Below are positions 17,095-38,890 of a stretch of DNA of 64,000 nucleotides, one piece after another. This DNA comes from Monilinia fructicola (lineage: Eukaryota > Ascomycota > Leotiomycetes > Helotiales > Sclerotiniaceae): the NCBI GenBank assembly GCA_008692225.1, contig VICG01000001.1, positions 248,001 to 312,000 of the forward strand. Direction: 5' to 3'. The notes beneath the pieces were generated by a model, which was not told the DNA's origin, searched no databases, and saw only the letters and a list, made by a program, of their open reading frames with translations. The position numbers and the translations under genes were made by a program. How positions within the stretch are numbered: position 1 is the first letter of the stretch; the number at the start of each line of letters is the position of its first letter.

Positions 17095-20000
17095 TCATGC
17101 TGCGACCTCCTCAGTCGGCCTGTTGACCTGGCCACGGAACAATACTCGAACACCATTTTCGCCAATAGAGGTGCGGCCATGCAGAGTATCAGAGTTATCA
17201 AAACATATGAAATCTCCCACGCTCCAGCGATGCTGGTACGTGTATCTAGGTTGAAGAAGAAATTCTTCTAGCCTTGCAATAAGCCTATCCGACTCGGGCT
17301 TCTCAGCACCAGCCACCCTAACTCTCCAACTTGCCGGAATTCCCTCTGGGAATTGCAGCGCGAAGTTCAGATACAGCTTACCTTCATGTGTTCGCAGTGG
17401 TGGGATAGGAAACCATGTATCTCCCTGCAGATCATAATGTCCCTCTTCTTGGATTTGGTATTCAAAGGTCTTGTTCTCCAGTTCGGCACGTAAATCACTC
17501 GGCATCTCCGCCAATGCCTTCAGCTGGTCGACGATGATTGTCTCGCCAGATCCGAGCTCGTCCGAGAACTCGGAAGCGTACAGGATAACCATGTCAGGGC
17601 GGTGACCGACGAAGATTCCATCTGTGTGGAGAGGTAGTGGACCACGACCGAGGACAACATTGCCTTTCTCTCGCGTTGCGCCGAGTTTCATGAGGTCGCT
17701 TCCTCCGGTTTTGAATTTGTGCACCACGGGGTTTCCGATGCCCCTGACAAGTGTCTTGAAATCATCCTCAGCGAGTGGTAGATTCCTCACGAGAATTAAT
17801 CCAGAAGTACTAGCTCCCTCGCGAATTGTTTTTGAGAGCTCGGTGAGGTTGCTAGAGTCTCCCGCTCTGTCGAGAACAATACCCAAGCCTGAGGGAGTCA
17901 GAGTCTCTCGTGCTGATCCTCCATTTGTCAGAGCACTACCATTGGTATTACTGAGCTTGGGAGCTAGATCATCGATGTCGGCGAAGGGATCTTTCAGAAG
18001 ACGGGCCGTGATATCTCTGAATATCTTGCCATAGGCCTCAATCTTACTAGTGCGACCACCAAAGGTATCATCAAGACCACCTTGCAGACCTCCCCCCCCG
18101 AGGTGGATACCAATCTTCTGTCGCCAAGCAGTGGACATAGGCACGTATGGTTCCATTGCTGACCTGAAGAACGCCTTCTCACGGCCGCCGTGGAGCTTGC
18201 AAGTTGGGTGAATATTCAGCGCTGTCTGTACAACGTCCTTATGCCAGTAAGGATGAGACATTTTCTTTCCCGCCACGCAAGCAGGAAAGTCCGTGAACTC
18301 GCCAGTATGACGTACGATATCAATGCCATCTACTATATCTCTCAATAGAGCTTCGGTCTCAGAGGAGTCTGGTGGGAGACCAAGGTTCAGTAGATCACTG
18401 CCCAACCCCGTGAGAATATGCTGCTCCTTGATGATACCGCTGCGCATCATAGCAGTGATGGTGAGCAGAATATCCACTCGGTCCCTCTCTGCCGTTCCGA
18501 GGCCGCGAATTGACTCCGGGATGGCTGCGTACAAATCTTCAGCCGAGAAGTCAACGCGCACGTGAGGGATCCCGAGGTACTTGGTCAACTCTGCGGCTTC
18601 GTCGTGTTCATTGCCCCAGGGTGAGCCGGCACTGTATGCAGTGACTTTTAGACCTTGACGAACAGCGAATGCTGTCACTGCTCCTGAATCTATACCTCCA
18701 GAGAGCAAACACGCAACGGACTCTACGCCTTCAGTCATCTCGGAGACGGCCTTCTGCAGAGAAGAGACAAACGTCAAACCCGCTTCTTTGAAATCGTTAA
18801 CCTGTGGGTTTAATCCCGCTTGTATAGGGTCGTTATGCTGTTCTATGGCAAAATTCCAACCGTCACCATCTTTCTTGATCTCTGCAGAAGAATGAGGTGG
18901 CAATAGGGATATTCCAAAGAAACTTGTTTTCTCTCATCACAACTGACCGACGTTGGGTCGGCGAAGTCGACGGGCAGTCCCCATTGCGAACGCGCACAAT
19001 TGAGCGTGAATGTGTCTGTTCCCAAAGCCCACGCATTGGTCTCAGGGTTCCGTACGACGTAGAGTGGAGGGTCGTTCATGACTCCCGTTCTCAGACGGAC
19101 AAGCTCTCCACGTACTTCGATGGAGGTTGCCCATTCTGGGAATTGCCTTAACGCCGCATTGTCGTCTAGCCAGGAATACGCATCAGAGAACAAAGCTGCT
19201 CCTTGGCCATATATGAGAACCCCGGAGTCTTTCTTCTTTTGCAGAGACTTTTCGAGGGATGGAATGGGCTTGTTTGCTATTAAAATCCACGATGGCCCCT
19301 TTTTCTGGCTTTTGGTGATGATTTGCTTCATCTTTACCTGTGCATTGCCTGCCGCGAAGTTGTTGCAGTGGGCACGCTTTGCTTCCTCACCAATTGCCAC
19401 TACGCCTTTGATGAAGGTGGAGTTGATGTGTGGCCGTGTTCCTTGGACAGCCGTTGATTGCCAAGACCCTATGGCCTGGGCTCGCTCTAGGGCTCGTGTA
19501 ACGAGATTTTTTGAAGGCACGACCTCATGGAGTAGCCCATCCCTTAACGAGCTTTGGGCATTCCATTTTTCTGAAGTAAATAACATGTTTTGCATTACTG
19601 TTCTTCCAACCACAGCCTCCAGCATGAAGCCTCCAAAGTTGCAGGCAATGCCCACTTTGAGCTCAGGCATCACAAGTTGGCACTCTTCTGAACCGATACG
19701 GTAGTCGCAACAAAGAGCAATCTGAAGTCCAAGACCAATGGCGTACCCGTCAATTGCGGCTATCACAGGCTTGGAGATGCCGGCAACTGTGGTGTAAAGA
19801 TTGGTGAAGTTATCAATCCAAGCGCGAACTTCGTCGCCGCCGTTGAACTTTGAGGTTTCGTGAAAGTCGCCACCGGCGCTGAACGATCTTCCCTCGCCTC
19901 CGGTGAGGACAATGCACCCAACGGCATCATCGGCGTCAAGCCTTTTGACCAGAGCCTCAAGCTCTTGCATTTTTGACTGGTTGAAAGGGTTGTGAATGTT

Positions 20001-20159
20001 ACCCTTTGAGAATGTCACGAGTGCTGCTCGTGACTCAACGCGGACAACGAATAAGCTCGCGTCACCGCCATTGGAAGCAGCATTGTTATAGGAGGTGGTG
20101 TGGTTATCTGAGGTGTAACCACTAGGTGTGGCATAGTCGTTGGTCGCTGAGATTGCCAT
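17095..20159 (-). CDS. Trifunctional carbapenem-type synthase: CarB-CarA-CarC fusion
   Basis: One ORF of about 1,021 codons, allowing for one missing base at about 18927-18930. Residues 35-285 are a crotonase like CarB (carboxymethylproline synthase): RSFSAGGDF and IDGYAIGLG form the oxyanion region and VMPELKVGI carries the expected catalytic Glu (about 166). Residues 289-725 match CarA/beta-lactam synthetase: a degenerate Ntn domain without an N-terminal Cys, the SGGIDS ATP loop (about 487-492), and WRQKIGIHLGG with the expected catalytic Lys (about 682). A disordered linker (about 729-757) precedes a CarC-like oxygenase: GRGPLPLHTDG supplies His845/Asp847, DTLHGR His994, and VRVLFRGQ an Arg for 2-oxoglutarate. 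By family knowledge the three would make carboxymethylproline from malonyl-CoA and pyrroline carboxylate, close the beta-lactam, then epimerise and desaturate. The start is set at MAISATND; an upstream in-frame Met (20210) would add 17 residues. The product is inferred. Confidence 0.9.
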
Positions 20160-21570
20160 CTCGGAATACTGCAAGTTCTTGATACAATCAAAGGTGACTC
20201 TGCCTCTCAAGCGAAGAGCTGTGCGCCCTCTACAAATATAAGTGAAAAAGTGAGCGGTTTATCATGCCAAGGCTCGCGACTGCGTGCGAAGAGCACGTTC
20301 ACCATTAGCTCACGATCGATCAAATACTTCCTTGGCAAAATAATGACTTCGTACCTTGATATCGGCGTGGGGGGTGAAGAACCAAGCAAATGCTCAGATG
20401 AAACGAACAGGCGCCAGGGTCACAATTGGTCCGAAATGCTGCCTACCGAATCCAATAACCTCTGCTTCTTTGTAGGAACCGGAACTCAACAATCTCGGAT
20501 GCATTTCTTGTATCATACTGTCTTATTGCGGAAATGCAGGACGATCTATAACGAGGGGTCTTTCCAGCTGGCGAGGCTTAGTCGTGTGGTATGTAATGAT
20601 TCTGACATTCTAACAATAAGATTGGCTTGACCATAAGAATCCCAATTTCAGTCCAAATAAACTTTGATAGGGAAATATTTGGTTTGTTCTCGTATATTCG
20701 AAATATTATTGATATTTGAAGTTCTTATATCTTTTTACATTCTTGATTAATGAAGTAATTATATCACTTGATTCTTATTTAAAAGTTATCCAAATATAAA
20801 ATTTTAAAATACAACTATTAGCAGCGCTAATTTTAAAGATTTCAAAATTAAAATAAAATACTTTTAAATAAGGTACTTCTATAAGTTTATTCCATCTCTT
20901 ATAATATTTCACTACTTTTTTACGTAGATTTTTAATATGAGAATACCTCTAAACATTTTCATTTTAGCGTTAGAAATATTATTCCCATATTAGATTTTGC
21001 CATACTTTGAGTCAATTAGAATATATATTTAAAGCTAAAAAGCAGAAGGGGCTAGACTTAACTACTCCTAGTAGAGAACGAGCACTTTACTTCGCACCAG
21101 ATGATTACCTCCACCTTGAATAATCCACAATAGCCTCATAGTCTGGGTCTGAATGCCCTTGCAATTGGTATATTCCATCCCCAATGCTTGCCGTTATAGC
21201 TGTCGAAAACCAAACTCTCATGTAAGATTTTAAGGAACCTATATTGTATCAGCTTTCTACTTTGTTTTGAGTGTTCGACTTTACAAAGGGGGGAAATACT
21301 AGGATATAGTACTCTTTTTTCATTCGAGTCTGGTGTAGATAAGCGTAGGCTAAGAGATTTGTATAGATTATCTCATTTTAGCGATTAAAAGTTCTAAATT
21401 CAGAATATATTTCTTATAATATTAGATGTTTATATAAGTTAAGTATTATAATAAAGTAGAATTAAAATTTTCTATTTTTCTATTAGTTTTTATATAATAA
21501 AATCATTAAGAATTACAATACATTAAAAACTATATATTAGTTATATAAAGAAATAATGCTTCTTTATTAT
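20160..21570. other. CarB-A-C upstream region and AT-rich block
   Basis: The first 450 bases upstream of the fusion gene are of normal composition and probably include its promoter. From about 20640 to 21560 the DNA becomes strongly AT-rich with no ORF of interest, as in repeat-induced-point-mutated or relic repeat DNA. Confidence 0.6.
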
Positions 21571-21576
21571 TAAAGG

Positions 21577-22206
21577 AAGATGTTTATTATTTATTATTTA
21601 TTATTTATTATTTATTATTTATTATTTATTATTTATTATTTATTATTTATTATTTATTATTTATTATTTATTATTTATTATTTATTATTTATTATTTATT
21701 ATTTTTATTATTTATTATTTATTATTTATTATTTATTATTTATTATTTATTATTTATTATTTATTATTTATTATTTATTATTATTATTATTTATTATTTA
21801 TTATTATTATTATTTATTATTTATTATTTATTTTTATTATTTATTATTTATTATTTATTATTTATTATTTATTATTTATTATTTATTTTTATTATTTATT
21901 ATTTATTATTTATTATTTATTATTTATTATTTATTATTTATTATTTATTATTTATTATTTATTATTTATTATTTATTATTTATTATTATTATTATTTATT
22001 ATTTATTATTTATTATTTATTATTTATTATTTATTATTTATTTATTTATTATTATTATTTATTATTTATTATTTATTATTTATTATTTATTATTTATTAT
22101 TTATTATTTATTATTTATATTTATTATTTATTATTTATTATTTATTATTTATTATTATTTATTATTTATTATTTAATTTTTATTATTTATTATTTATTAT
22201 TTATAT
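21577..22206 (+). repeat. Heptanucleotide tandem repeat (TTTATTA)n, about 630 bp
   Basis: Almost uninterrupted TTTATTA units with a handful of TTA-only or TTTTTA slips. Because seven is not a multiple of three, one strand reads as an open frame of repeating FIIYYLL, which is not a gene. Breaks occur about every 60-100 bp. It lies between the CarB-A-C gene and the ABC transporter. Confidence 0.97.
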
Positions 22207-23759
22207 TTCATATAATATTAAATCTAATTGCAATATTAGTAGCGATGTTATAGAAAGCAAAAAGATCGACCATAACAGCAATGAGCACATTCAAAGTATC
22301 AATACTGACAATGGTTTTAACCTTCGTATTTCGTAACAACAGGCTCGATTTCCAACACGATATCAAAATCATACCATCAATTCCGCGTCCTCTCCTGCAA
22401 CGTAGAGTTCTCCCCGAATAAATCAGAAAAAGCGCAATACGCCGTTCTTTCCCCCGCTTCGCCCCTTTCGATCCACCCATTCTCCAACCCCGGATCCACC
22501 CATTCTTCAACCCCAGGTCAATTTAGGGGCCGAGGTCTGCTGCACGCTAAAACGTTAATTAGATGACACTCCACGCTGCAGTATCATCGCGGACTTCCAT
22601 CGAAAAGTTAATTAACAGCTCGTAGGCGCCCAGTCCCGTTCTAGATGTGCTAGCCATCGTACCACGTATCCTGCCCCCTCGCCAGACGCGTTAGTAATCG
22701 TACCACGTATACTTTCCCCTCCCTTCACAAAAGGTTAAATGGCGAGCCCTCTCTAGCAGGCGTTATCTAAACATAAGCCAGATTTCGATCTTGTACTTAA
22801 TCTAGAGTGCCTAAGTAGTACATGGTAAGCTTTTAGCGTTTATTTGTAGCAAGATAAAAATCCAACGCTAAGTCATATTCGCTAGATCAATAGGGGCCAG
22901 TCCATATTTTAACCTATCTTGAGGGGAGGGGAGGATAGTAGCTGGGCGAGCTGGAAGTAGTAAAGTCAATCTGATTTTCTAAAACCTTATCATGTCGTGA
23001 TAAAAGGATTGGCTCTCGAAATCACTTTGTGTTATTTTTAGATTTTTGTGCCATTTTCACGGGTTGTTCATATTTTCGTTTTTTAGAATCCAGTACAATG
23101 AACATGTTTGAAAATATCTATATAAAATTCAATCTCCACCCTGACTCTTTTTCAGCCTTTTGGAATCAAAATTGATTAGGTGCAAGCACCTCAAAATCAT
23201 TAAACCTACACGTCATCCAACAGATTGCGTATAATCATTAATTATCAGTAGATTATTGCGCGTCCTGATTAGCTTTTTCATAAATGCTGCGACACAGTCC
23301 CGTCTTGACGATTTCTTGTTCTTCTCACAACCCCTCCCTGTACGTAAACTGAGGTAGATCCTGCTCATTTACATTTCTCGAATCTATACGGTAAGGCCTT
23401 GGGCTCGCTGACCGCCACTGCCTCGTTGCTTACTCTCCCTCGAGCCAGCTCCCCAACTGGGTCTGTTTCGTATATGGAGAGATTAAGTTTGGCCCAAGAG
23501 TTTCACCGATTCATATAACGGAATCTGCAACTTCGAGCTCGTAGCTGCTCTTTCACACGTGGCATCGGAAGTATACAGTACTGTACTGTAAGACAGTCGG
23601 GGAATCATGCAAGGCTAGAGCAACGATTCGACCCGCTTCACCGCATGCTCGCAGGAATCTGGACTCTTTCAAGGGAAGTTTCTGACGTTTCTACATTGTT
23701 CGACGGTAAACATCGTAATCGTATTACCCGCCACTGCCTGTTGCACTGCCTATTGAGCC
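22207..23759. other. Gene-free spacer
   Basis: Mixed-composition DNA with no convincing ORF. Positions 22640-22730 hold two diverged copies of a segment with gctagccatcgtaccacgta / gttagtaatcgtaccacgta, suggesting a relic duplication. Confidence 0.5.
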
Positions 23760-25678: not shown

Positions 25679-28600
25679 TTAAGATTGGTCTATGTTCGTT
25701 GTAAACAGCTCGTAATATCTTGCTTTCTTTGCCATCAGCTCCGCGTGCGAGCCATATTCGACAATCTGCCCTTTGTCCAGAACGTATATCGTATCCGCAT
25801 TCTTGACTGTGCTCATACGATGGGCAATTGTTATCATTGTACGTCCCTTCTTCGCCTTCTCAAGTGCCTCTTGGATTAGAGCTTCGCCTTGGGAATCGAT
25901 GGCTGATGTGGCTTCGTCAAGGATTAGGATAGCAGGATCTCTGACGAGTGCTCGGGCAAGGGCTAGACGCTGCTTTTGACCTCCACTCAATTGATCACCA
26001 CGATTGCCGACAACGGTATCAAATCCTTCACTAAAATCTACATTAGTACCTCGTGCTTCCCAAATTTTCGACTCAAAACTCACGGTAGCGAAGAGATGAA
26101 GTCATATATATTAGCCTGTTTGGCATGCCTTCTCTAGGACAGCCTGAGGAATGACTTCGTCCTCGTTTCCAGCCAACAAGTTCATCCTTATAGACCCGCG
26201 AAGCATTGTCGGCTCTTGATTCACCAACCATCCGATACAGCGGCGGTATTCAGAAAGATTGAGGGAAGTGATAGAATCTCCGTCAACGAGGATCGTTCCG
26301 CTCTTAGGATCATAAAAGCGTTCAAGTAAAGCCACAATCGTGCTCTTACCACAACCAGTGTGTCCAACAAGTGCAATGCTTGAGCCGGCAGGAACCTTGA
26401 GTGAAACGTTCTTCAATGCAGGATGCTCAAGTCGAGTAGGGTATGCAAAGTTTACGTTCCTGAATTCAATAAACCCTTGAGGCTTTCCATTTCCGGGCTT
26501 TCCGCCTTCATCTGATGCGGGATCGATGCTCGATTTGCGATCGAGCAGCTTTTGTAGTCCAGAAGCGGATCGCTTTGCTTTGCCGATATCAGGCGTGAAG
26601 GAGAATATCAAGCCTGCTGAGTATGCACTTGTGATAATGGAGGAGTAAACCACTACAAACTGAAGAAGGGAGTACTGGCGCTCAAGAAATAGAGTTCCTC
26701 CGTACCAGAATCCCAGTGCCATACAAGCAGTGACGCCAGCTCGTGCCAGGGCAAGTACAAGTGATGCTTTCAAACTCGACTTCAACCCCTCTCGAGAAGA
26801 CGCAGTGAGGATGTTCTCGTAAATTTTAAGAACTTCGTTCTCTCTTGTGAGAGCAGCCACGGTCTGAATGGCTGCAATAGCTTCACCGGCGTATGCAGCC
26901 GATGCTTTGGTGTATATTTCGTTGAGTTTCTCAAATTCACCAACCGCCCAAACTCCAATACAGCCGCTTGCGACGAGAACGGGGATTACTGATGAACACA
27001 CAAGTGCCAATTTCCAACCAAAGACTACACCGACAACGAAAGCAGACACGAGAGTGGAGACCGCAATCAGGATCATGCCAAGAGTGCCACCGCTGATACC
27101 TGCCAAATCCGCAGCCTCGGTAGAAAGGAAGCTGACAAGCGTGCCAGCTGAGTTGGTTTTGTCGTCGAAGAATGCAATCTCTTGACGGAGCATTTGTTTC
27201 AACGCAAGCTGGCGAGCCCTGTGTATCAAGCGCTCCGAACAGTATGCGAAAACTAACCCTTGGACGCTGAATACTAGGATCATGACTAGTGCCAGCATGA
27301 AGAACATCCATGCCCAGAAGCCGGCATCCGAGCGAATTTGATTGGCAAGACTGAGGGGCTTTGATATAGCAATTACTCCTTTACCGAAAAATATAGCTGA
27401 GGCGGGCTCCTCGACGCCTGCAATAACCGAGCAGAAAAGGCCAAGGAGAATGTAGTGCCATTCTTTGGCATTCAGTCTCAGGACGAAAGTGACCATCGAG
27501 AGCAGTGAATACGAAGAGCTCTGCTCTTGGATGGAGTGTTCTCCTGGGGGAATTTCAGTGACCTCGGTGTCCGAGAATTCTCCTTTTTCGATGTCAGTTT
27601 CAGCAGTGCTTATCTGCTTGACATTTTCCTCCTCGTGATCTATATCCTCTTCTTCTTCGATTGCCCTTTGAGCTTTTACAAGGTCGTAGTATGGTCCTCG
27701 ACAATCCATCAACTCTGTGTGTGTACCTTGCTCAACAACCTTACCGGATTTCAGTACGACGATGTTATCGGCTTCGCGGACAGTAGACAAACGATGCGCA
27801 ACGATGATAGTTGTTCTGGTTGTACTCGAGGCATTCAGCGCTGATTGAACAGAAGCCTCTGTTTTTGTATCCAATGCTGAAGTGGCTTCATCGAGAATGA
27901 GTATCTTAGGCTCGGCAACAAGAGCCCTCGCGATGGCTATCCTTTGCTTCTGGCCTCCTGATAGCTTAGATCCTTTAGTACCTGTGATTGTTTGATATCC
28001 CTGCGGGAGAGCTTCAATAAACTCATGCGCATTGGCAATCTTAGCAGACTCTTCGATTCTCCTCTGTTTATCCTCGGAGGAAGCAGTTTCAAATTGAGTA
28101 CCGACAAACCCATGCGCGATGTTCTCGAATATGGTTGTATCAAACAAGAAAGGTTCCTGATTAACGAGTCGGATTTGGCGTCGAAGCCACTTCAAATTGA
28201 GATCTTGCAGGTTGTGCTCATCAAGAACGATCTGGCCAGCCATGGGTTCATAAAAACGCATAAGTAATTTTGTAATGGAGCTTTTACCAGAACCAGAGGC
28301 TCCAACGACGGCGGTAGTTTTGCAACGAGGAAATGAGATACTCAGATCGTCGGCCACCACAACGCCTGGCCGAGAAGGATATATGTGGCGAATATTTCGC
28401 AGTTCAATGTTGCCTTGAACATTGTCAAGCACAATCCCATGTTCTGACATGGAATCAATTGGAGGGATTCGCACAATCATTTGAAAGACTCGCTTTGCCG
28501 CTGCAATAGCTGTTGTGAAAGTTTCTGCATTTTGCCCCACCCCGAGAACACAAAATGCTGCACTCTTGGTGATCAATGTGATGGCTACGACAGCCCTAAA

Positions 28601-29593
28601 GGTAACCTCGCCTTCAACCAGGAACCGCGAGCCTTGCCAGAAAGCCAGTGCAACATTGAGGTAGCCCGTCCCCACGGTGATAGCAACCATTGTACCCATG
28701 AGAGTTTTCAGGGTAATCTTAGCCTTTTCAGCTACATCAAGGTATTTGTCGTAAGAATCCACAATGTGCTTTTGCAAACCTAGTGCCGTTGTACTTCTGA
28801 TTGAGCCTATTGCTTCTTCGGCGATAGAACTTCCAGTGGATTGTGCTTCCATAGATTGCCCAGAATACCGAACTGCAATCTTATTGCCAAGATAGAGAAG
28901 GAGAAGACTAAGAAAGAAAGACCATATCAGAATGAAAGTAAGTTTCCAAGACAAAGCAAAGCTGACAATATACGTAGCCAGTAGCGTTCCCAACGCGCTG
29001 ATCGTGATTGATAATTTCTGAGAAATGGCGTCCTGAATGATATTCAAGTCCGCGCCCAGCTGTGCCACCAGCTGTCCAGTGCCGATGTCATCGAAAACTG
29101 CGATATTTTGGCGCAAAACCGCTTCCATGTACCGCAGCTTGATTTGACGCGTGATCTTTGAGCCAGTATAGGCGAATCCAGCGGTAGACACGAACCAGCA
29201 TACAAACGCGCCAATTGCTATATATACAAAGTACAACGAATAAACGGAGATGAGGTGGTTGGAATGGCTCGTGACAGCGTCGCCATTTTGAATGCCGGCA
29301 AAAATGTAGGATATTTGGCCCAAGATAATCTGCACGGGTGATTAGCAGAGTGAAGTTTGCTTTTTGAGGGCGAAAATATGTACAGGAGGCAGGGGAATTG
29401 TAGCGCCAGCTATTAAAGCGCAAAACGTGCTGATAGCAATGATAATCAAGTCATTGGCTGTTGCGAATCGAAAAAGAGTGAAGAACGAGACTTTGACATC
29501 GGGGAAATGCAGTTGTCGCTGAATGATTTCCGCGTCTTCATGGCCCTTCACAACGCCGGGACTTTTTTCGTCAAGACATGATGCTGTAAGCAT
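25679..29593 (-). CDS. Full ABCB-type (MDR) ABC transporter
   Basis: Exon 1 is 29593-29384, exon 2 29329-26084 and exon 3 26030-25679, about 1,268 residues in a TMD-NBD-TMD-NBD layout. NBD1 (Walker A near residue 415) has [24 protein letters not shown] and [15 protein letters not shown]2 has [24 protein letters not shown] and [12 protein letters not shown]. This is a B-family exporter of the multidrug or a-factor-exporter type. The last intron (26083-26031, gtgagt...ttttag, with a TACTAAT branch site) is clear. One extra base at about 26115-26116 (GG in acaGGctaat) breaks the frame inside the highly conserved EKACQT-ANIYDFI block around residue 1141. Coding continues intact on both sides, so I treat it as a sequence error or a very recent mutation. 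Its place between the CarB-A-C and ATP-grasp/NRPS genes suggests it exports the cluster product. Confidence 0.9.
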
Positions 29594-31957
29594 GGCGAGG
29601 GTATCCCGGATCTAAGCTCTTATGAGGCTGCTGTAGAAGGCCTTTATGCTACAGGCTTCTTTTGAAACCGTTTCAAGAGGTAGGATTCAACGGTTGTAGT
29701 AGCCTGTGATCCAGAGGATCATTCTACAATGATTCGAGATAATGGTCGGGTTTTGCGGTCAAAACCCCATTAGCAAGTGGTGGACTTGGGTAAAATCCGG
29801 CTTCTAGCTTTGAAATGCCGTCTTATACTTGCCCCATGGATGCACGATTGCTTTAATGCCGCCTATTCATGCCGTACGTGTCCCATTTTGAAACATTGAG
29901 GCATTGAAGTGCTAAAGTGCTGAAAAGCTGGAGTTCTGAAGTGCTGATCATGAGGACCTTAGTGTTTAGATGATACAGAAAGAGGTGAGCATAAAATCCC
30001 AGTGAACTACTCGCCGCTTTTACCCCTGTTGGTCTCATAAAAGGATAGCATCTCATTTATACTGCTTATATGCGTACTAACAACCCCGGGGCCATCTAAG
30101 CCTCGGTGCGAAACGAGTTGAACTAAAGGAATTATAGGTGACCCACTTCCACCTTTATTAATAAATATACGATAATCATTATTTGAATATATAAAGATAA
30201 ATTTCAATCAACTATTTAAAGTGTATTATTAGACTTAATAAAGCCTATTAATTCTTTAAATATTTATGATATAAAGATTTAGTATTAAAGCGTTTTAATA
30301 ATATCAATCTTTTAATTAATCTTCTAATTATATATTTTATATGTTTTAAAAAGTAATAAATAGATTCTCATCATTAATCAAAATAATAATATACTTTTTT
30401 TGAATTTGATATCTTTAAAAGGTATTAAAATAATAAGCACTACCTAATTTATTATTTTCTTCCCTTTTTCTTCCGCCCTAGAAAAGCTAGACATTGTTTA
30501 CAGTACTATAGTAAGATATGAGGGACGCGGGGGAAAAGCCTGGACCACCGTTGATACAGTAGATATGATCACATAGTATCAAACTTTGAGAAAAGCCTAA
30601 TTACGGGGCGGTAAAGTAATCCACACTGCACACTGCACACTGCACAGCAATGGAGCAAACTTAAACCTACAAGGGAGGACGGAATGTTGATCTGACTAGT
30701 TCTACAGTACTGTAGTGTAACGTACTGTACATAAGCGCCGCGGATTTGATATCCACTTCAGATTAGTACTACTTCGGAGCAATTTCAAAAAAAAAACCTA
30801 AAAAACTATGCAGAGTTGGTATGTAACAAGGGTATATAGTAAACTTTCTACTATCACTTACTGGATTACTATAGGCCAGCTGTCCACAAAAATAAATGAT
30901 AATAGAAAGCTAATTGTTTGTAAACTAATCGAGTATAAATCTTATAATATCGTTGATAGTATATACTGTAGTCTTGACCTATGAAGCGAATACGGTCTGC
31001 GGTCTTGAATCGGAGTGTTGAACTCAACGTACTTATATGAAAGTATTAGCTGTCTATAATAAATAAATGAAAATGGAAAATAATATAATTAATACTAGTA
31101 TATAATTGCAAACAACGAATTTCAAACAAAGCCAGTACTGTCTGCGATCTCCAATCGGATTCTTAAACCCAAAGTACACGTATCGCCCGGAAAGTATTCA
31201 AAATAGTACGCTAAAATAAGGGGGAAAAGGCTAATTATATTACTTCCTTTTCGAAACTGAAATCTTTGAAAATACTTTCTGGCGGCACAAGTACTTATGT
31301 GGAAGTACAGAGGTTGGAACTTGGAACGGTACTGTATGTCGCGCTGAAAACCCTCACTGCCAAAAACTCGAAAAGGGTAAAGAGCACCAGGGTGTGAGAC
31401 TGGGACCGATGAAACAAGATGGTGTAAGGCTAAGCCCTTTTTGAGTGGCCTTTCCTACTGTACAGTAAGATCACACCTTGTAGTTGTCGATCTCCAGGGC
31501 ATATTTCTAGGATAATGATTACCGCGTTAAGAAGGCTAGCTATTCTTGGAGTCTAGCTATCATGTGAATCTTGCTACAGTATTACATACTTTCTTAGGTT
31601 TTTAGCTTGCCCAACTTGAACATTTAGCTGTGTTCAGCATTATTTTGAAATACAAAAACATATCTAGCTGGATAGAGTAATATACTACGCTTCAAGATCT
31701 AGGAGTGCCAGGCTTTTCTCTCTTAAATATTTCCAAGCAGCAGTGAGGTTTTGTTAGCCAAACCTTTGACTCACTGATGAGATTACAGAAGATTTTCTAT
31801 CTCTTGTGCAATTCATAAAACCCTTGCTGGTGCACTGTGAAATACTTGATTCCAATCTCATTGCTCGTCAAATAGGTTGGCTGACTGCAAGACTTCATCA
31901 ATTCGCTTCTTCAGAGCTGGAACCACCAGAGTTCCTCGGCTGTTTTTATACAACAGT
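29594..31957. other. ABC promoter and AT-rich spacer
   Basis: Divergent spacer between the ABC transporter and the ATP-grasp gene. Positions 30140-30460 are very AT-rich without ORFs. Short palindromic words such as cagtactgta and gtactgtac recur at 30705-30735. Two diverged copies of a segment with gtatagtctatgaa-like sequence and the motif caatcggattcttaa / gaatcggagtgttgaa lie near 31000 and 31150. No gene is seen. Confidence 0.5.
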
Positions 31958-34133
31958 ATGGCTTCACAGTATACGATACCTGGCTACCTTCGGCACGTGC
32001 TTGAAGTAGATGTGGACGCGAGGAAAGGTAGGCGTCAACTGCACTGCAGTATTTAATCATGAATTGCTGAGAAACATCACTAAATGTGACTTAGTTCTTC
32101 TTGAATGTTATTGGAAGCTCAATGAGCACTTGCCCTCCATCGAAGAACAGGTACCAAAGGTTGATCAGGAGGTCTCCTTTGCCACCTTGAATCTTTTCTT
32201 CGCCCCATCGCCAATATTTCCGCATGGAAAGGATTCAGACCGTGTAAACGACATACCATGTTTTGCTTTTCCCGAAAGCCTTGAAGACCCCCGTTCCAAG
32301 ATTTCGCTTTTTCTTCAAGATGTGATAAGAAAACATGTCGCTTTGTATGGTTCTTCCATCACTGCTCTCAAGCTTTTACTGCCCAAGGTCAACGGTTATG
32401 TCTGTCGTGGCGACATTATTCAGCGGCGCTTTCTCACTTGTGATCTAGCTGAGAAGGCAGCAGACTTTACCACCGTTAGACAGCAAATCCGAGCTTTTGA
32501 TTTCAAGGGAGAAAACATCCTCCAAAGGGCTCTATGTGGCGCCGTCGGTGCTGTCGTACTGAAACGACTTCCTGGCATCGATCAGTCACTCGTAACATCT
32601 GCCCTGGATCTACTAGATCATGAGATGCTCTATCGACTCTCTCTGACTTGGATTCTGGATGCCCCCTTACCAAGGAAACGGCTCGCAATGGTGGAAGGGA
32701 GGCCAAGTCCCGCTGTCTCAGCTGCTTCGATGGGTATCTATCGAGCGGCATCGGCGCTGGGTATTGACCTCGTTGTTTTGGATCATGATGGTCACTGGGT
32801 CCAAGATCCAGCCATGGAATCTCTGCGCGCCGAGTTTATTGCATGCGATATCACAATAGATGAGGGTTTACCGGATCGGATTGTACAGGCTGTATCCAAG
32901 AGCAAGGAACCAATAGATGCCATTGTAACCTTCCCAGATGCCTATCTCTTGAGTACCGCTCGAGCGGCCAAGAAGTTGGGACTTCATACTAACCCACCGG
33001 TAGCACTAGAGATGTGCCGTGATAAAAGAAAGACGCGTGAGATAGCATCGGCAGACGTGCAAGTCTTGTCCGTCACCGGAGTTGCGGACCTGAAGCAGCA
33101 GCTGCCACTTTTCGTTGATCTCATTAAATATCCACTTATTGTCAAACCTACAATGGGATGCTCCTCCGAAGGCGTTAGCAAAGTCACTTGTGAAACAGAG
33201 CTCATCGACGCCGTGTCTCGGAACGAGGAACAATTTCCTGGAGTCAACTCTCTCATCGAGCCATATGTGTCAGGTCCCGAAGTTGACGCAAACTTCGTCT
33301 TGCTAGACGGTAAACTCATATGGAGCGAAATCAACGATGATTTCCCTTCTTCTGCTGAGATGCAACTATCTAATGACATCCCTGACGAGAATTCAGCGTC
33401 AACATCATCATCATCATCATCGAAATCTTTTGCGGAGTCGTCCACGATTATTCCCTCCATACTCCCTGGGAACGAGATTGCATTGTTGAAAGCATCCTTA
33501 GCGGAAACACTTGTCAAGCTAGGCTTCAGAAATGGCGTATATCACCTGGAAGCTCGTGTCAAAGACAGCAAAAGCAACTACGCCATGACCACTACCGGAG
33601 TAGAGCTTGTAGAGTCTCCCCAGTCACCCAACGCGACTAGAGAGCCAAGCGTATTCCTCATTGAGATTAATGCCAGGGTGCCTGGACACCAGGAAACTTT
33701 CGCGGTGGAATATACCTACGGTATTGACTACTTTGCGCTCTCGATGCTGATGGCACTGTCATCCGACAAGAATTCGGGAAGCAAATCAGTGGATAACACC
33801 GCTTTGGAATCTGTTATTCATACTCTAAGCCAGCCTTACTCTGCACATGTGCAGTACCCAACGAATATTGTATTTATACCCGCTGAGCGTGGCGGCACTT
33901 TCATGTATGCAAAGCCGCTGCCAGAAGACTTGATGAGGCATGTTGTTGAATATACAGTGTTTATACAGAAGGGTGAGGTTATCAAAGACCCGGAAAAGGA
34001 AGGGAAGTGGCCTTTTGTAGCTTATTTCTTGGTTGTTGGAAGTCTGACGGGTCGGGAGGGGAGAGAGCAGGTTAGGAGAATTGGGGAGAGGATTAGGAAA
34101 GCGTTTGAGTACGAGATGAAAGCCTTAGAATGA
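31958..34133 (+). CDS. ATP-grasp ligase (carnosine synthase/glutathione synthetase-like fold)
   Basis: The main ORF is 32010-34133. A better N-terminus begins at ATG 31958 (MASQYTIPGYLRHVLEVDVD) and reaches it through a one-base slip at about 32021-32029 (aggaaaggta), giving about 724 residues. The first 225 residues form a conserved-looking N-terminal domain (TKCDLVLLECYWKL). After MVEGRPSPAVSAASMGIYRA comes an ATP-grasp fold: CRDKRKTRE, then YPLIVKPTMGCSSEGV (ATP-binding Lys and glycine-rich loop), LIEPYVSGPEVDANFV (adenine-binding segment) and FLIEINARVPGH (Mg2+ site). Such enzymes activate a carboxylate as acyl phosphate and join it to an amine, making an amide or dipeptide-like bond. In this cluster it could couple an amino acid to the bicyclic core or form a dipeptide substrate; that is inference. 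It is transcribed in the same direction as the NRPS 1.4 kb downstream. Confidence 0.85.
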
Positions 34134-35578
34134 CTGTAGAGAAAACTTGTCTTTGGAGTCGACGTTCTCGATCTTATTTTACATAATCAATAGATACAGA
34201 TATTTACACGTGATTTTTAGAGACTAACGGCCGCTAGCTCCGATTTTCCTTCCTAGCTGTTGCCATTGAACAACATAGCTTCGTCCCTCTTTCATTCTTC
34301 CTTCTATAACCTTGGAACTTTATATCCTGCTATGCCGGCTGGAGATAGCAATTCGTTTCGTTTTCGTTTCGTTTCGTTAAGTCAAGTTAGGTTATGTTAC
34401 GTCACCTAAAATCTAAGAAATTCTGGCAATCTGGTTGGTCAATACGAATGATCTCAGTTCAACGGTCATAATGTATAGCTATGGGTAGGTGGCTTGCGGC
34501 ATACGATTGATTAGGTTGGGAATTGAAATACCTAACCACAGTATCCATGGATATGGAAGAAAGCCAAATCATTCTGCCTTTACAATCCAATCCTTCCTTA
34601 CGAGAGAAAGCGGTGTAAAATGATCTAGCCCATATTGCTCAGCGGTATGCTTCCGCAGCGACCTGGAAACTGTAAAAACAGTGAACAACTGAGTCTCTTG
34701 GGTTCTAGATGATGCAATAATAATCTTGTTATTTTGGTAGCTTACGGAGTAGAGGTATAAGAAGGTACAGCTCCGGTATCGCCGAATAATAGCTCTAATA
34801 TAGGTCAACTAACGCGCCAAGATATGCATCTACTATAACAACTGCTTAAGAAGTCAGTCTCGAATCTTTAACCTTTCTTCCTACAGTATAATAATCGTTG
34901 GCTCCCAGGTCTTGAAGGCTAGTCGATTTTCTCAAGATATGTTTTCGAGATTATATCATGAATATAAGGATTCTCCATAATCGAGTTTTTATGAAAGTTT
35001 ATTAAAGCTTGGGTAGACTGTTTTCAGAAATTTTAGACTTGAATAGGTATCCATGGATAATGTAGTATTATAGTTTCGGTAACATCATACTCAATCGAAG
35101 CAAGCTTCCAAGGTTATCACAAGGATCACCAATAGATCCATATTCTCGTATGCCCGATCTAAGCAAGCTTAGGTTTGAACCTGCATGCATATAAGCGAAC
35201 AATTCAAAATAGGTTTTCAAAAAAGTGCCCAAGACCTTAAAGTGTATTTCTTGAACGGGGTCAGATGAGAATGTTTTCGATTAAACAATGATCAGCTATC
35301 GGAGGCCTGAATATTTCATTATAGATAATAATTTAGTCATGGTAGTGTGGAAAAATCTACGGTGCCCCCCGTTGCTACCACTGACTGGGGGGTGAGGTCT
35401 ATAATGCCCCGGCCGTCCATGGCACGGTATCTCGCTGAGGAACAAATATAGCTGTGGTGAAAGGAAGTGACCATTTAGTCCAGAAAGTTTCTGGACTGGC
35501 TACTAGGTACTTTCGTATGACACTGTTTGAAGATTTTCTGTTTGCAACATTCTCCAGAACCAAACTTACCTAGCATCA
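34134..35578. other. Spacer and NRPS promoter
   Basis: No gene. TTTCG repeats occur at 34350-34376 (cgttttcgtttcgtttcg). A small GC-rich inverted repeat (gccccccgttg / actggggggtg, 35362-35394) stands out from the AT-rich background about 190 nt before the NRPS start. Confidence 0.5.
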
Positions 35579-38500
35579 ATGTCAACTCCCGAAATCTCAG
35601 ATGGCTTGGAAAGAGTGTGGAAAGCAAATGCAGCCGTACCTGATGCTGTCCATGACTGTGTGCACAACATAGTTGCTCGCACAGTCGTGAGACAGCCTAA
35701 AGCACCGGCTATATGTGCTTGGGATGGAAACTTGACGTATGAAGAGCTAGATAACTTGTCGTCACAACTTGCATACCAACTAGTTGACCTTGGTATCGTC
35801 TCTGGCGATATTGTGCCTCTATGTTTTGAGAAGTCGATGTGGACACCCGTGGCCGTTTTAGGTGTTGTGAAGGCGGGCGCTGCCTTTGTATTGCTTGACT
35901 CTAATCTTCCTGATGAGCGTTTACAAGTTATAGTCCATCAAGTGAGCCCCAAGCTGGTTCTTGCATCGCTTCAAAATCGTGATCTGGGTTCGCGCCTCTT
36001 CCAGAATGTGGTCATTGTTGGACCTGAGAGCCTTGGTGGCAAGCAGCCCCTCTTACCTTCGACTCATCTTGCGACACATCCATCTTCCGTGGTGTATATT
36101 GTCTTCACGTCGGGAAGCACTGGAGTTCCAAAGGGCTGTGTCATAACGCATCAGAATTTATGCTCAGCTCTGCATCACCAAATAATAAGTCTTGGCTTCG
36201 AACCAACCTCACGAGTTTTTGACTTCTCATCGTACAGTTTTGATGTTGCGATACACAACATCTTTGCAACCTTGATCATTGGAGGTTGTGTTTGTATTCC
36301 GAGCGAAGAAGAACGGAAAGGTGACCTGGAAAAGACCATGTTTAGAATGCAAGCAACACTTGTTGACTTGACTCCAACTGTGGCACGCCTGCTTAGTCAC
36401 CAAGCAATTTCCAGCTTAAAAACCCTGATCTTGCTGGGGGAAATAGTGACAGAGCACGACAGCAAGGCGTGGTGGGGCAAAACTAGATTGATCAACGCCT
36501 ACGGACCGACTGAATGCACTTCAATCAGCACTATCAATCATACAGCAACTGGCCCCGGCATGGTGAGCAATATCGGTAGAGGTAAAGGCGTAGTAACCTG
36601 GATCGTAAATCCTCAAGATCACAATGTTCTCTTACCGTGGGGCCAAATCGGTGAGCTTCTCCTTGAAGGACCAATAGTCGGTTTGGGATATTTGAATAGT
36701 CCACAACAGACTTCAAACTCCTTCATTGAAAGCCCTGCGTGGCTCGTTGAGGGTGCGTTTGGTGTCCAGGGCAGGCAGGCCAGGTTGTACAAGACAGGTG
36801 ATCTTGCACGGTATGATGAGGCTGGAAATATTGTATGCATTGGGCGAAAGGATACTCAAGTAAAAATTCGCGGCAACAGAGTGGAGCTTGGTGAAGTCGA
36901 ATGTCGCCTTCAGGATTGTATGCCCGAGGGTACTCAGATAGTCGCTGAAGCTATCATACCAAAGGGATCGAGCGAAAGCAATGTTTTGGCAGCATTTATG
37001 AGGATCCAGGAGAATTCCCTCATGCAAAGCTACCAAATTTCTGACGATTCTGAAGTCAGATTGCTGGTGCCCAGCAAAACTGTGGAGCTTGAGCTGGCTA
37101 AGCTTTTACCAGCCTACATGATACCCAGTCTATTTTTTGCTATGTCTGAGATACCATTGACACCATCTGGAAAGACAAATCGCAAACTCTTGCGTGAAAT
37201 TGGTGCCTCTTATTCGGTCGAGGAACTAACACTGAAAGCCGGAATCGTAGCTTCAACGCCAAAAAGGCCACTGACAGAGACAGAAGAGGTACTGCAAGCG
37301 ATGTGGACACGAATATTGAACCTTGATAGCAACAATATCGGAGTAAATGACAGCTTTTTCCAGCTTGGAGGGGACTCAATCGCGGCAATGAAGCTTGCTG
37401 GCGAAGCGCGTAAAGTTGGTATGAAGCTGACAGTAGCCGATATTTTTCGTTACCCGGCTATTGAAGACTTGTCCCGGCTTATAAAAACCGAAGAGGCAGA
37501 TATCCACGAGCAAGCTTCTGTAACAACGCCTCTGCTTGAACCTAGTCTGAAGGCTGCTTTTCTTTCTGATATAGACCTATCTGATATTCCGTTACGTGCA
37601 GATGATGTCCTTGACATACTGCCACTGACAAATCTCCAAGAAACTTTCATAGCGGAAGGCATATCAGAGAATCTCCAGATCGTCGATTATTATTATCTGG
37701 ATCTCGGGCACCACTTGGACGTTGCGAAGTTTGAAGAAAGCTGCGTGAAACTTTTGGAGGGATACCCAATTCTCCGCGCGAGCTTCCTACCCTTTGACGG
37801 AAAGCAATGGATGGTTATTCCTAAGCATCTTAAACTACCCTTTGTGGTCAGCTATGTAGACTCAGATCTCCAAGATGCACTGGCGGACTTTTGCACGAAT
37901 GATATAGCATCCTTCGAGCGCAACCAGCCTATCATAGCCTTTATCCTTTTGCGGAACAAAATACAAGGAACACGGCTGGTAGTCCGCTTATCGCACGCTC
38001 AATATGATGGTATATCTATCGAAGTAATCTTCAAAGCTCTTATGGGTGTTTATAATGGTCAGGATATCCCCGAGCGAACAGATTGGTCAACTTACGTTCA
38101 GTATATCCACCACCAGAAACCAAAAGCGGAAGTGTATTGGCGAAATTTATTATACAAATCAAAATATACGAATTTTGCAGAGCACTTTCCAATATCAAGC
38201 TCCGACTCGAGGCCTGTGGCTTTTCGCGTCGGAAAGGAGACCACTTTTCCAGAAATACCCATTGGCATTACTGTTGCATCATTTATGAGCGCTGCCTGGG
38301 CTATTTTCCTCTCCCAGCTTCTGGGCAAGGAGGAAGTCATTTATGGGCAACTAGTCAACGGACGCAATGCTGCACTGCCAAATATCGAAGAGGTCGTCGG
38401 CTCATGTATCAACATCGTCCCAGTGAGGGTTGATCTTTCATCTCACCGCACTCTGGCGGAATTGGCGTTTGCGGTACAAGAGCAATTCATCGCATTGGGA

Positions 38501-38890
38501 GACTCCGATTCACTAGGATTTAGAGATATAATTGACAGCTGCACTGACTGGCCCGCGGGCTCCAGGCTTTTTTCGTGCACACAACACCAGAATATCGAGG
38601 AGGACGTAGCTTTCGAAACGGAGGGCTTCACCAGCAGGTTGCAGAGGTTCAATAATCCTCGCAGACTTCCTTATTTCTTCTTCATGATTTCATTCCCTCG
38701 AGGAGATAGACTTGGACTACAGATATTTGCTCACTCACATATGACCACTCCGGAAACAGCAGAAATACTGCTCGACAAATTTCTCCCTGTTATCGAGAAG
38801 CTGGCAGCGGGCCTAAAGAATTCTGTGTCAATTGATAATCTGGTACAAAATATTGGTAGTATTGATCTCCGAAAGAATATGGCTGTATAA
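35579..38890 (+). CDS. Single-module nonribosomal peptide synthetase, A-T-C
   Basis: Intact intronless ORF of 1,103 residues. The adenylation domain (about 20-540) has all core motifs: FTSGSTGVPKG (177-186), NAYGPTE, YKTGDLARY, KIRGNRVELGEVE and PSGKTNRK. The thiolation domain carries the phosphopantetheine site LGGDS (Ser600). A terminal condensation domain (about 680-1100) has SHAQYDG (805-811) in place of HHxxxDG, a variant common in fungal condensation domains. By-eye alignment to GrsA gives specificity positions D,V,H,D,I,L,A,S,I,K; I do not recognise the substrate, though an acidic residue at position 278 may suit a basic side chain. There is no thioesterase or reductase, so the terminal C domain probably joins the loaded aminoacyl group to an amine or alcohol acceptor. 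Close to the ATP-grasp and CarB-A-C genes, it probably tailors the same product. Confidence 0.93.
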   Translation: MSTPEISDGLERVWKANAAVPDAVHDCVHNIVARTVVRQPKAPAICAWDGNLTYEELDNLSSQLAYQLVDLGIVSGDIVPLCFEKSMWTPVAVLGVVKAGAAFVLLDSNLPDERLQVIVHQVSPKLVLASLQNRDLGSRLFQNVVIVGPESLGGKQPLLPSTHLATHPSSVVYIVFTSGSTGVPKGCVITHQNLCSALHHQIISLGFEPTSRVFDFSSYSFDVAIHNIFATLIIGGCVCIPSEEERKGDLEKTMFRMQATLVDLTPTVARLLSHQAISSLKTLILLGEIVTEHDSKAWWGKTRLINAYGPTECTSISTINHTATGPGMVSNIGRGKGVVTWIVNPQDHNVLLPWGQIGELLLEGPIVGLGYLNSPQQTSNSFIESPAWLVEGAFGVQGRQARLYKTGDLARYDEAGNIVCIGRKDTQVKIRGNRVELGEVECRLQDCMPEGTQIVAEAIIPKGSSESNVLAAFMRIQENSLMQSYQISDDSEVRLLVPSKTVELELAKLLPAYMIPSLFFAMSEIPLTPSGKTNRKLLREIGASYSVEELTLKAGIVASTPKRPLTETEEVLQAMWTRILNLDSNNIGVNDSFFQLGGDSIAAMKLAGEARKVGMKLTVADIFRYPAIEDLSRLIKTEEADIHEQASVTTPLLEPSLKAAFLSDIDLSDIPLRADDVLDILPLTNLQETFIAEGISENLQIVDYYYLDLGHHLDVAKFEESCVKLLEGYPILRASFLPFDGKQWMVIPKHLKLPFVVSYVDSDLQDALADFCTNDIASFERNQPIIAFILLRNKIQGTRLVVRLSHAQYDGISIEVIFKALMGVYNGQDIPERTDWSTYVQYIHHQKPKAEVYWRNLLYKSKYTNFAEHFPISSSDSRPVAFRVGKETTFPEIPIGITVASFMSAAWAIFLSQLLGKEEVIYGQLVNGRNAALPNIEEVVGSCINIVPVRVDLSSHRTLAELAFAVQEQFIALGDSDSLGFRDIIDSCTDWPAGSRLFSCTQHQNIEEDVAFETEGFTSRLQRFNNPRRLPYFFFMISFPRGDRLGLQIFAHSHMTTPETAEILLDKFLPVIEKLAAGLKNSVSIDNLVQNIGSIDLRKNMAV

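What the first reader, a model, noticed from the sequence alone, without database searches (positions are those of the whole stretch)
17095..20159. A eukaryotic one-protein carbapenem pathway: CarB, CarA and CarC homologues fused in order
Seen: one minus-strand reading frame carries a crotonase with SFSAGGDF/GYAIGLG/MPELKVGI, an asparagine-synthetase-like domain with SGGIDS and WRQKIGIHLGG, and a clavaminate-synthase-like oxygenase with LPLHTDG, QPRYTYQH and VLFRGQV. Established: bacterial CarB, CarA and CarC, separate proteins, make the simplest carbapenem from malonyl-CoA and pyrroline-5-carboxylate. Inference: this fungal protein does the same or a closely related chemistry, channelling intermediates between domains. 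Fungal beta-lactams known to me (penicillins, cephalosporins) arise by an unrelated NRPS/IPNS route, and I know of no characterised eukaryotic carbapenem-type synthase. I have not been able to search the literature.
Basis: partly seen in the sequence, partly recalled or inferred. Interest (0 to 1): 0.97.

Follow-up and report, generated by a model that had tools for sequence, protein, structure and literature searches.

The report
Fungal three-in-one carbapenem-type enzyme gene
A fungus carries, as one gene, three bacterial enzymes that in bacteria build carbapenem-type antibiotics; seemingly intact relatives exist in other fungi, but this copy, as assembled, is interrupted and lacks one catalytic residue, and no product is known.

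Summary
The three domains are real and correctly named. On the minus strand of Monilinia fructicola Mfrc123 scaffold 1 lie, in order, CarB-, CarA- and CarC-type domains. They group with CarB/ThnE, with CarC, and apart from AsnB, not with enoyl-CoA hydratase, AsnB or TauD. One correction: it is not one reading frame. Two ORFs in different frames meet at 18843-18933, where relatives' protein records run on; the NCBI 996-aa model bridges this with a weak 74-nt intron. The Monilinia CarA domain also has Leu at the catalytic Tyr345 position. This copy may be decaying, or the break may be an assembly error. Ten fused proteins are in the database; 8 of 10 keep the CarB and CarA catalytic residues and CarC iron ligands. 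Actinobacteria carry the genes separately, in B-A-C order in 10 of 16 loci, so transfer and fusion is the likeliest origin. The likeliest function of intact copies is a one-protein route from malonyl-CoA and pyrroline-5-carboxylate to a carbapenam or carbapenem; the last oxidation is uncertain. Ten literature searches, seven aimed at this, listed no fungal case.

The parts
18843..20258 (-). ORF 1 (stop to stop; ATG at 20159): CarB-type domain plus N-terminal part of the CarA-type domain
19311..20045 (-). CarB/ThnE-type carboxymethylproline synthase domain (ORF 1 residues 39-283); equivalents of CarB W79, Q111, E131, H229 kept, M108 replaced by Leu
18934..19298 (-). N-terminal part of the CarA-type domain (limits approximate); internal in the chain, so no N-terminal Cys
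   Evidence: sequence; alignment; P0015 against CarA 117-463
18843..18933 (-). Frame break: the two ORFs overlap here in different frames; the NCBI model spans it with a 74-nt intron, relatives' protein records run through it
17095..18933 (-). ORF 2 (stop to stop, first Met at residue 66): synthetase part of the CarA-type domain plus CarC-type domain
18082..18816 (-). CarA / beta-lactam-synthetase-type ATP-dependent cyclase domain (ORF 2 residues 30-274 counted from 18903); P-loop SGGIDS at 18685-18702, Glu (E380) at 18298-18300, Lys (K443) at 18115-18117
18403..18405 (-). TTG (Leu) where CarA has catalytic Tyr345
17125..17892 (-). CarC-type Fe(II)/2-oxoglutarate oxygenase domain (residues 338-593 counted from 18903); HxD at 17620-17628, distal His at 17179-17181, Arg267 equivalent at 17134-17136, Tyr165 equivalent at 17434-17436

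Best explanation
The locus is the Monilinia member of an ascomycete family of fused CarB-CarA-CarC enzymes. The family most likely arose by transfer of an actinobacterial carB-carA-carC-like operon into fungi and fusion of the three genes in operon order, which is also the reaction order. In intact members the CarB domain should condense a malonyl-CoA-derived enolate with L-pyrroline-5-carboxylate to carboxymethylproline. The CarA domain should close the beta-lactam with ATP, using the Tyr-Glu dyad and Lys. The CarC domain should then oxidise the carbapenam (epimerisation and/or desaturation, or another oxidation) with Fe(II) and 2-oxoglutarate. All substrates are primary metabolites and fungi have no peptidoglycan to protect, so one gene could be a whole pathway (inference). 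Shown here: domain identity, order, residues, tree placement, presence in three classes of ascomycetes. Inferred: catalytic activity, product, direction of transfer. The M. fructicola copy, as assembled, is interrupted and has lost the CarA Tyr, so it is probably decaying, or else its assembly has an indel error.
For: Solved-structure search: CarB domain to 5o34 1.4e-97 and CarB 2a7k 2e-44, against 3.9e-28 for the best ordinary enoyl-CoA hydratase; CarC domain to CarC 1.8e-38 against 3.6e-9 for the next oxygenase; synthetase to bLS 3.9e-24 and CarA 7.1e-19 against AsnB 4.9e-5. The printed 5o34 stretch (49-293) is identical to part of the S. cattleyicolor protein P0040, so it is ThnE of the thienamycin producer. 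Trees: fungal-type CarB domains form one clade (14 rows incl. unnamed standalone P0039, 96/93) inside the CarB/ThnE clade of 50 rows (98/94), apart from ordinary hydratases; CarC: 32 rows with 1nx4 against 7tcl/PvcB, 100/100; CarA: 43 fungal and actinobacterial rows (100/97) apart from AsnB. Residues: CarB W79/Q111/E131/H229 in 13 of 13 fused-type rows, three of them partial proteins; CarA Glu380 and Lys443 in 10 of 10 fused rows, Tyr345 in 8 of 10; CarC iron ligands, R267, Q269, W202 in 11 of 11 rows, i.e. the ten fused proteins and partial P0013. Ten proteins with all three Pfam domains. B-A-C order on one strand in 10 of 16 distinct actinobacterial loci with all three genes.
Against: No product, expression or structure. 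Window copy interrupted, Tyr345 is Leu, an extra Gly lies in the loop after Lys443. P0003 shows that a gene model can bridge a break, so 'intact' for the other records is not proven at the DNA level. CarC Tyr165 position is Tyr in 5, His in 5 and Leu in 1 of 11 rows. The CarA tree does not say whether the family is nearer to CarA or to bLS (long branches), and the fungal CarA clade has only 84/61 support. In the other six of the 16 loci the order is not B-A-C. Actinobacterial clusters carry extra genes (ArgJ, argininosuccinate lyase or synthase family, AMP-binding, NRPS) not seen among the 19 window ORFs scanned, except for a dissimilar NRPS 15 kb away.
Confidence: 0.7

Rival explanations
1. 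Intact fungal fusions make a bicyclic beta-lactam of another kind than the simple carbapenem: e.g. they stop at a carbapenam, or hydroxylate instead of epimerising and desaturating, or use a different imine or acyl-CoA.
For: CarC position 165 varies, and position 67 is His instead of Tyr in all 11 fused-type rows. CarB position 108, which steers selectivity in CarB/ThnE (PMC6542682 passages), is Leu or Ile. P0157 carries a sulfotransferase piece after the oxygenase. Actinobacterial clusters have arginine-type genes.
Against: Monilinia and four other rows keep Tyr at position 165; the CarB residues W79, Q111, E131, H229 are all kept.
Confidence: 0.35
2. The Monilinia gene is a pseudogene: frame break, lost CarA Tyr, only a CarC fragment annotated in M. 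laxa.
For: Two frames. Leu for Tyr345 is a substitution, not an indel error. Extra Gly in the loop. M. laxa protein P0156 is 198 aa and covers only the oxygenase, and no named M. laxa protein for the other parts was among those listed (one search lists 120 of 457).
Against: No excess of changes at conserved positions: 14 of 325, within the range 3 of 314 to 32 of 343 of seven other fused proteins (two near-duplicates left out), so decay would be recent. The assembly was DBG2OLC plus Sparc with about 24x PacBio (PMC6795239 passages), so an indel error is possible.
Confidence: 0.55
3. A real 74-nt intron restores the frame and the gene is active (the NCBI model).
For: Gene model P0003.
Against: The excised stretch matches sequence kept in relatives; borders GTCAGT...AAG look weak.
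Confidence: 0.08
4. Ordinary metabolic enzymes (hydratase, AsnB, TauD) fused by chance.
For: Pfam names are generic.
Against: E-values, trees and residues.
Confidence: 0.02

Closest known systems
CarB, CarA, CarC of Pectobacterium (simple carbapenem)
   Same: Three enzyme families; catalytic residues of CarB; Tyr-Glu-Lys of CarA in 8 of 10 fused proteins; HxD...H, R267, W202 of CarC
   Different: There three separate proteins (PMC6542682 passage); here one chain in B-A-C order in a eukaryote; CarC Tyr67 is His; CarB Met108 is Leu; in Monilinia CarA Tyr345 is Leu
ThnE / ThnM of Streptomyces cattleya (thienamycin)
   Same: CarB domain 62% identical to the S. cattleyicolor protein P0040, part of which is identical to 5o34
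   Different: That thienamycin lacks a CarC-like oxygenase is my recall; the fungal fusion has one
Actinobacterial B-A-C gene sets (loci L016-L021, L049, L050, L052, L053: Micromonospora, Rhodococcus fascians group, Peterkaempfera, Kitasatospora, two unnamed Micromonosporaceae)
   Same: Same three families, same order
   Different: Separate genes; of these ten, four (L017, L019, L049, L050) had neighbours scanned and show ArgJ, lyase, argininosuccinate synthase, AMP-binding or NRPS genes; CarC position 165 is Phe in 17 of 18 actinobacterial-type rows
Fungal penicillin/cephalosporin pathway (recall)
   Same: Beta-lactam in ascomycetes
   Different: NRPS plus IPNS, unrelated to these domains (recall)

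Membership tests
CarB/ThnE carboxymethylproline synthase | Groups with CarB/ThnE and not with ordinary crotonases | tested here: met
   98/94
CarB/ThnE carboxymethylproline synthase | Oxyanion-hole Gly62, and W79, Q111, E131, H229 | tested here: met
   13 of 13 fused-type rows incl. P0003
CarB/ThnE carboxymethylproline synthase | Makes carboxymethylproline from malonyl-CoA and P5C | not testable with these tools
   no assay
CarA / beta-lactam synthetase | ATP P-loop SGG[IL]DS and Lys443 | tested here: met
CarA / beta-lactam synthetase | Tyr345-Glu380 dyad (numbering of 1q15; role recalled) | tested here: not met
   Monilinia has Leu-Glu; met in 8 of 10 fused proteins and 13 of 13 standalone fungal-type proteins
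CarA / beta-lactam synthetase | Closer to CarA than to bLS | tested here: inconclusive
   long branches; E-values similar
CarA / beta-lactam synthetase | No glutaminase Cys at the N-terminus | tested here: met
   domain is internal in the chain
CarC carbapenem synthase | Groups with CarC and not with TauD/PvcB | tested here: met
   100/100
CarC carbapenem synthase | His101-Asp103-His251, Arg267, Trp202 | tested here: met
CarC carbapenem synthase | Tyr165, hydrogen donor in C5 inversion (role recalled) | tested here: met
   Tyr in Monilinia; His or Leu in 6 of 11 fused-type rows
CarC carbapenem synthase | Tyr67 (role recalled) | tested here: not met
   His in Monilinia and the other ten rows
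Asparagine synthetase B | Groups with AsnB; AsnB residues at positions 345/380 | tested here: not met
Trifunctional fungal CarB-CarA-CarC protein | One uninterrupted reading frame | tested here: not met
   window copy has two frames; relatives of 968-1048 aa are single protein records, DNA not seen

The most novel reading that the evidence does not exclude
Ascomycetes possess a single-protein carbapenem(-type) synthase, obtained from actinobacteria, that makes a bicyclic beta-lactam from malonyl-CoA and pyrroline-5-carboxylate. As far as the searches made here and my recall go, it would be the first eukaryotic carbapenem-class pathway and a second, independent origin of beta-lactams in fungi.
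Probability: 0.55. Interest if true: 0.93.

Novelty: new variant of a known kind. Interest (0 to 1): 0.8.

Why it matters
If intact members are active, fungi make carbapenem-class beta-lactams by a route unrelated to penicillin. A three-step antibiotic pathway would then have moved from bacteria to fungi as one fused gene. The fusion also gives a compact, single-protein system for studying carbapenam/carbapenem synthesis. Penicillium species have seemingly intact versions in the protein database, so the question can be tested directly. The actinobacterial B-A-C gene sets point to a group of bacterial beta-lactam-type clusters that I could not match to a described product.

Tried and rejected
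Structure prediction and superposition: not possible. First scan of prokaryote contigs with the Monilinia half-protein found nothing; the second, with an actinobacterial CarB alignment, gave 20 loci. Link to the ABC / ATP-grasp / NRPS genes 5-19 kb away: the window ATP-grasp is only 24% identical to the Catellatospora L-amino-acid ligase and the NRPS 21% and 27% to two actinobacterial ones, so no shared cluster is claimed. RIP as cause of the break: the indices over the gene do not show the RIP pattern (thresholds recalled). Decay by excess substitutions: not seen.

Literature: ten searches. Seven were aimed at fungal or fused Car enzymes; the others at 5O34, Rhodococcus att and the Monilinia genome with carbapenem. 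None listed a paper on a fungal CarA/B/C-type enzyme. 'Carboxymethylproline synthase' with 'fungus' had no hit. 'Carboxymethylproline' had 11 papers; one is a yeast paper, PMC11676789, whose table lists (2S,5S)-trans-carboxymethylproline among metabolites of whey fermented with Kluyveromyces (passage), with no enzyme. The last search matched 303 papers, of which 20 were listed. Only openly licensed papers are held.

Full report
Observation. The two minus-strand ORFs were read with tools. ORF 1 (18843-20258, ATG at 20159) holds a crotonase domain and then the first part of an asparagine-synthetase-like domain. ORF 2 (17095-18933) holds the rest of the synthetase and a TauD-type oxygenase. The frames overlap at 18843-18933. 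In that place relatives' protein records have an uninterrupted stretch (DPTIINRDETTSFLGVSQLPAH in P0004), and frame-by-frame translation of the window shows its two halves in two frames. The NCBI protein EYC84_006105 is exactly 404 aa of ORF 1 plus 592 aa of ORF 2, joined by a 74-nt predicted intron that removes this stretch.

Genome. The assembly held is 44,028,109 bp in 20 contigs and contig 1 has 4,238,823 bp, the published longest scaffold of M. fructicola Mfrc123 (published total 44,047,900 bp; PMC6795239, passages seen). One place in it matched the ORF 2 protein at E <= 0.001.

Identity of the domains. CarB domain: best solved relatives are 5o34 (1.4e-97) and CarB 2a7k (2e-44), against 3.9e-28 for the best ordinary hydratase. 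The printed 5o34 stretch is identical to part of the Streptantibioticus cattleyicolor protein P0040, which is 62% identical to the window domain. Synthetase part: bLS 3.9e-24, CarA 7.1e-19, AsnB 4.9e-5; a standalone fungal relative, P0015, matches CarA over 117-463 at 1.9e-25 and AsnB at 1.6e-5. Oxygenase: CarC 1.8e-38, next oxygenase 3.6e-9.

Trees. CarB (56 rows: 13 fused-type domains, 24 further proteins, 16 bacterial-locus proteins, three solved structures; in all 26 of the 120 proteins listed were used): 50 rows with CarB and ThnE against six ordinary hydratase rows (98/94), fungal-type clade of 14 rows 96/93, one of them the standalone metagenome protein P0039 (one row that I labelled ECH, P0144, in fact groups with CarB). 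CarC (34 rows): 32 rows with CarC 1nx4 against 7tcl and PvcB, 100/100. CarA (49 rows; P0013 and P0030-P0032 were not used): 43 fungal and actinobacterial rows, 100/97, apart from AsnB-like rows, bLS and CarA; the positions of bLS and CarA are unsure because of long branches. Inside it the fungal-type rows form one clade (23 rows, 84/61), and 13 standalone synthetases form a clade (100/99) nested among the fused ones, which suggests that they derive from the fusion by loss of the outer domains. 'Fungal' for the unnamed proteins rests on this grouping; named fungal rows are P0003, P0004, P0005, P0011, P0015, P0017, P0020, P0023, P0026 and P0156.

Residues. CarB W79, Q111, E131 and H229 are kept in 13 of 13 fused-type rows; position 108 is Leu, Ile in P0012. 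CarA: Glu380 and Lys443 in 10 of 10 fused proteins; Tyr345 in 8 of 10, Leu in Monilinia, Phe in P0007; Tyr in 13 of 13 standalone fungal-type rows and 16 of 17 rows from bacterial loci; AsnB and three AsnB-like rows have neither Tyr nor Glu there. CarC: His101, Asp103, His251, Trp202, Arg267 and Gln269 in 11 of 11 rows (ten fused proteins and partial P0013); position 165 is Tyr in 5, His in 5, Leu in 1 of these, and Phe in 17 of 18 actinobacterial-type rows; position 67 is His instead of Tyr in all 11. The roles of the CarA and CarC residues are recalled; the CarB/ThnE oxyanion-hole residues are from passages of PMC6542682.

Distribution and origin. Ten database proteins carry all three domains: M. 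fructicola (Leotiomycetes), two Penicillium (Eurotiomycetes), Colletotrichum spinosum (Sordariomycetes) and six unnamed. That search reaches only relatives sharing short exact words with the query. In the actinobacterial loci the genes are separate. Of 27 loci examined, 18 hold all three genes (recounted), 16 after removing two that repeat a contig region (L051, L054). In 10 of these 16 the order is B-A-C on one strand (three of the ten are near-identical Rhodococcus loci); in five Streptomyces loci CarC lies upstream of B-A on the same strand, and in L002 CarB points the other way. At E <= 1e-30 the CarC-type gene was found in 5 of 354 Micromonosporaceae and 6 of 394 Streptomycetaceae genomes searched; all five Micromonosporaceae genomes also have the CarA-type gene beside it. 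Neighbours in the bacterial loci that were scanned include ArgJ, argininosuccinate lyase and synthase families, EamA, AMP-binding proteins and NRPS. Transfer of such an operon to an ascomycete ancestor, with fusion in operon order, is the simplest reading; transfer in the other direction is not excluded by the trees but would require the fused gene to split into three.

State of this copy. Besides the frame break, the window copy has Leu for Tyr345 and one extra Gly in the loop after Lys443. Changes at positions conserved in the other fused proteins are not in excess: 14 of 325, against 3 of 314 to 32 of 343 in seven others (P0004 and P0011 left out as near-duplicates). In M. laxa only a 198-aa oxygenase fragment is listed. 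So either the gene died recently in Monilinia, or the assembly has an indel error over a gene whose CarA step is altered. Seemingly intact copies exist in other fungi, judged from protein records only.

Mechanism and limits. Steps shown: family, order, residues, distribution. Steps inferred: condensation, ring closure, oxidation, product, channelling. The order of the domains equals the order of the reactions. Substrates are primary metabolites and fungi lack the target, which would let one gene suffice; this is inference. The final oxidation is the least certain step.

Literature. Ten searches, seven of them aimed at this question (call numbers in Tried and rejected), listed no paper on a fungal enzyme of this kind. 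Some database entries are named 'Carboxymethylproline synthase', so the homology has been noticed in annotation, but no study was found.

Noticed in passing
25682-38887: ABC transporter (minus), ATP-grasp ligase-like protein (plus) and NRPS with A-T-C domains (plus) lie side by side; looks like a separate small biosynthetic cluster.
   Followed up: partly
21549-22253: Very AT-rich simple repeat (17% GC in 21001-22000) read as long low-complexity ORFs on the plus strand, between the gene and the ABC transporter.
   Followed up: no
P0157 (unnamed ENA contig): CarC-like domain followed by the start of a sulfotransferase domain (PF13469); a sulfated product or another fusion is possible.
   Followed up: partly
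P0014-P0026: A clade of 13 standalone CarA-like proteins, five of them named (Colletotrichum, Neonectria, Fusarium, Neoarthrinium, Diaporthe), with the full Tyr-Glu-Lys set, nested inside the fused ones; partner enzymes unknown.
   Followed up: partly
L008, L009, L011: Catellatospora clusters with CarB and CarA genes but no CarC-like match in the loci; Pfam run on L008 shows L-amino-acid ligase, MFS, ArgJ, aldehyde-dehydrogenase-like protein, AMP-binding protein and B12-radical-SAM.
   Followed up: partly
L019-L021: Rhodococcus fascians-group loci with B-A-C order; the CarA-like protein keeps a P-loop SGGVDSG but has Leu/Gln at the Tyr-Glu dyad positions. May correspond to the att locus (recall; some att genes described as related to antibiotic enzymes in PMC4092121, passage).
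   Followed up: partly
17098-20159: Third-position GC of the two ORFs (0.54, 0.51) is higher than that of five other window genes tested (0.39-0.48).
   Followed up: no
PMC11676789 table: (2S,5S)-trans-carboxymethylproline is listed among metabolites in a yeast whey fermentation (passage); untargeted annotation, source unknown.
   Followed up: no
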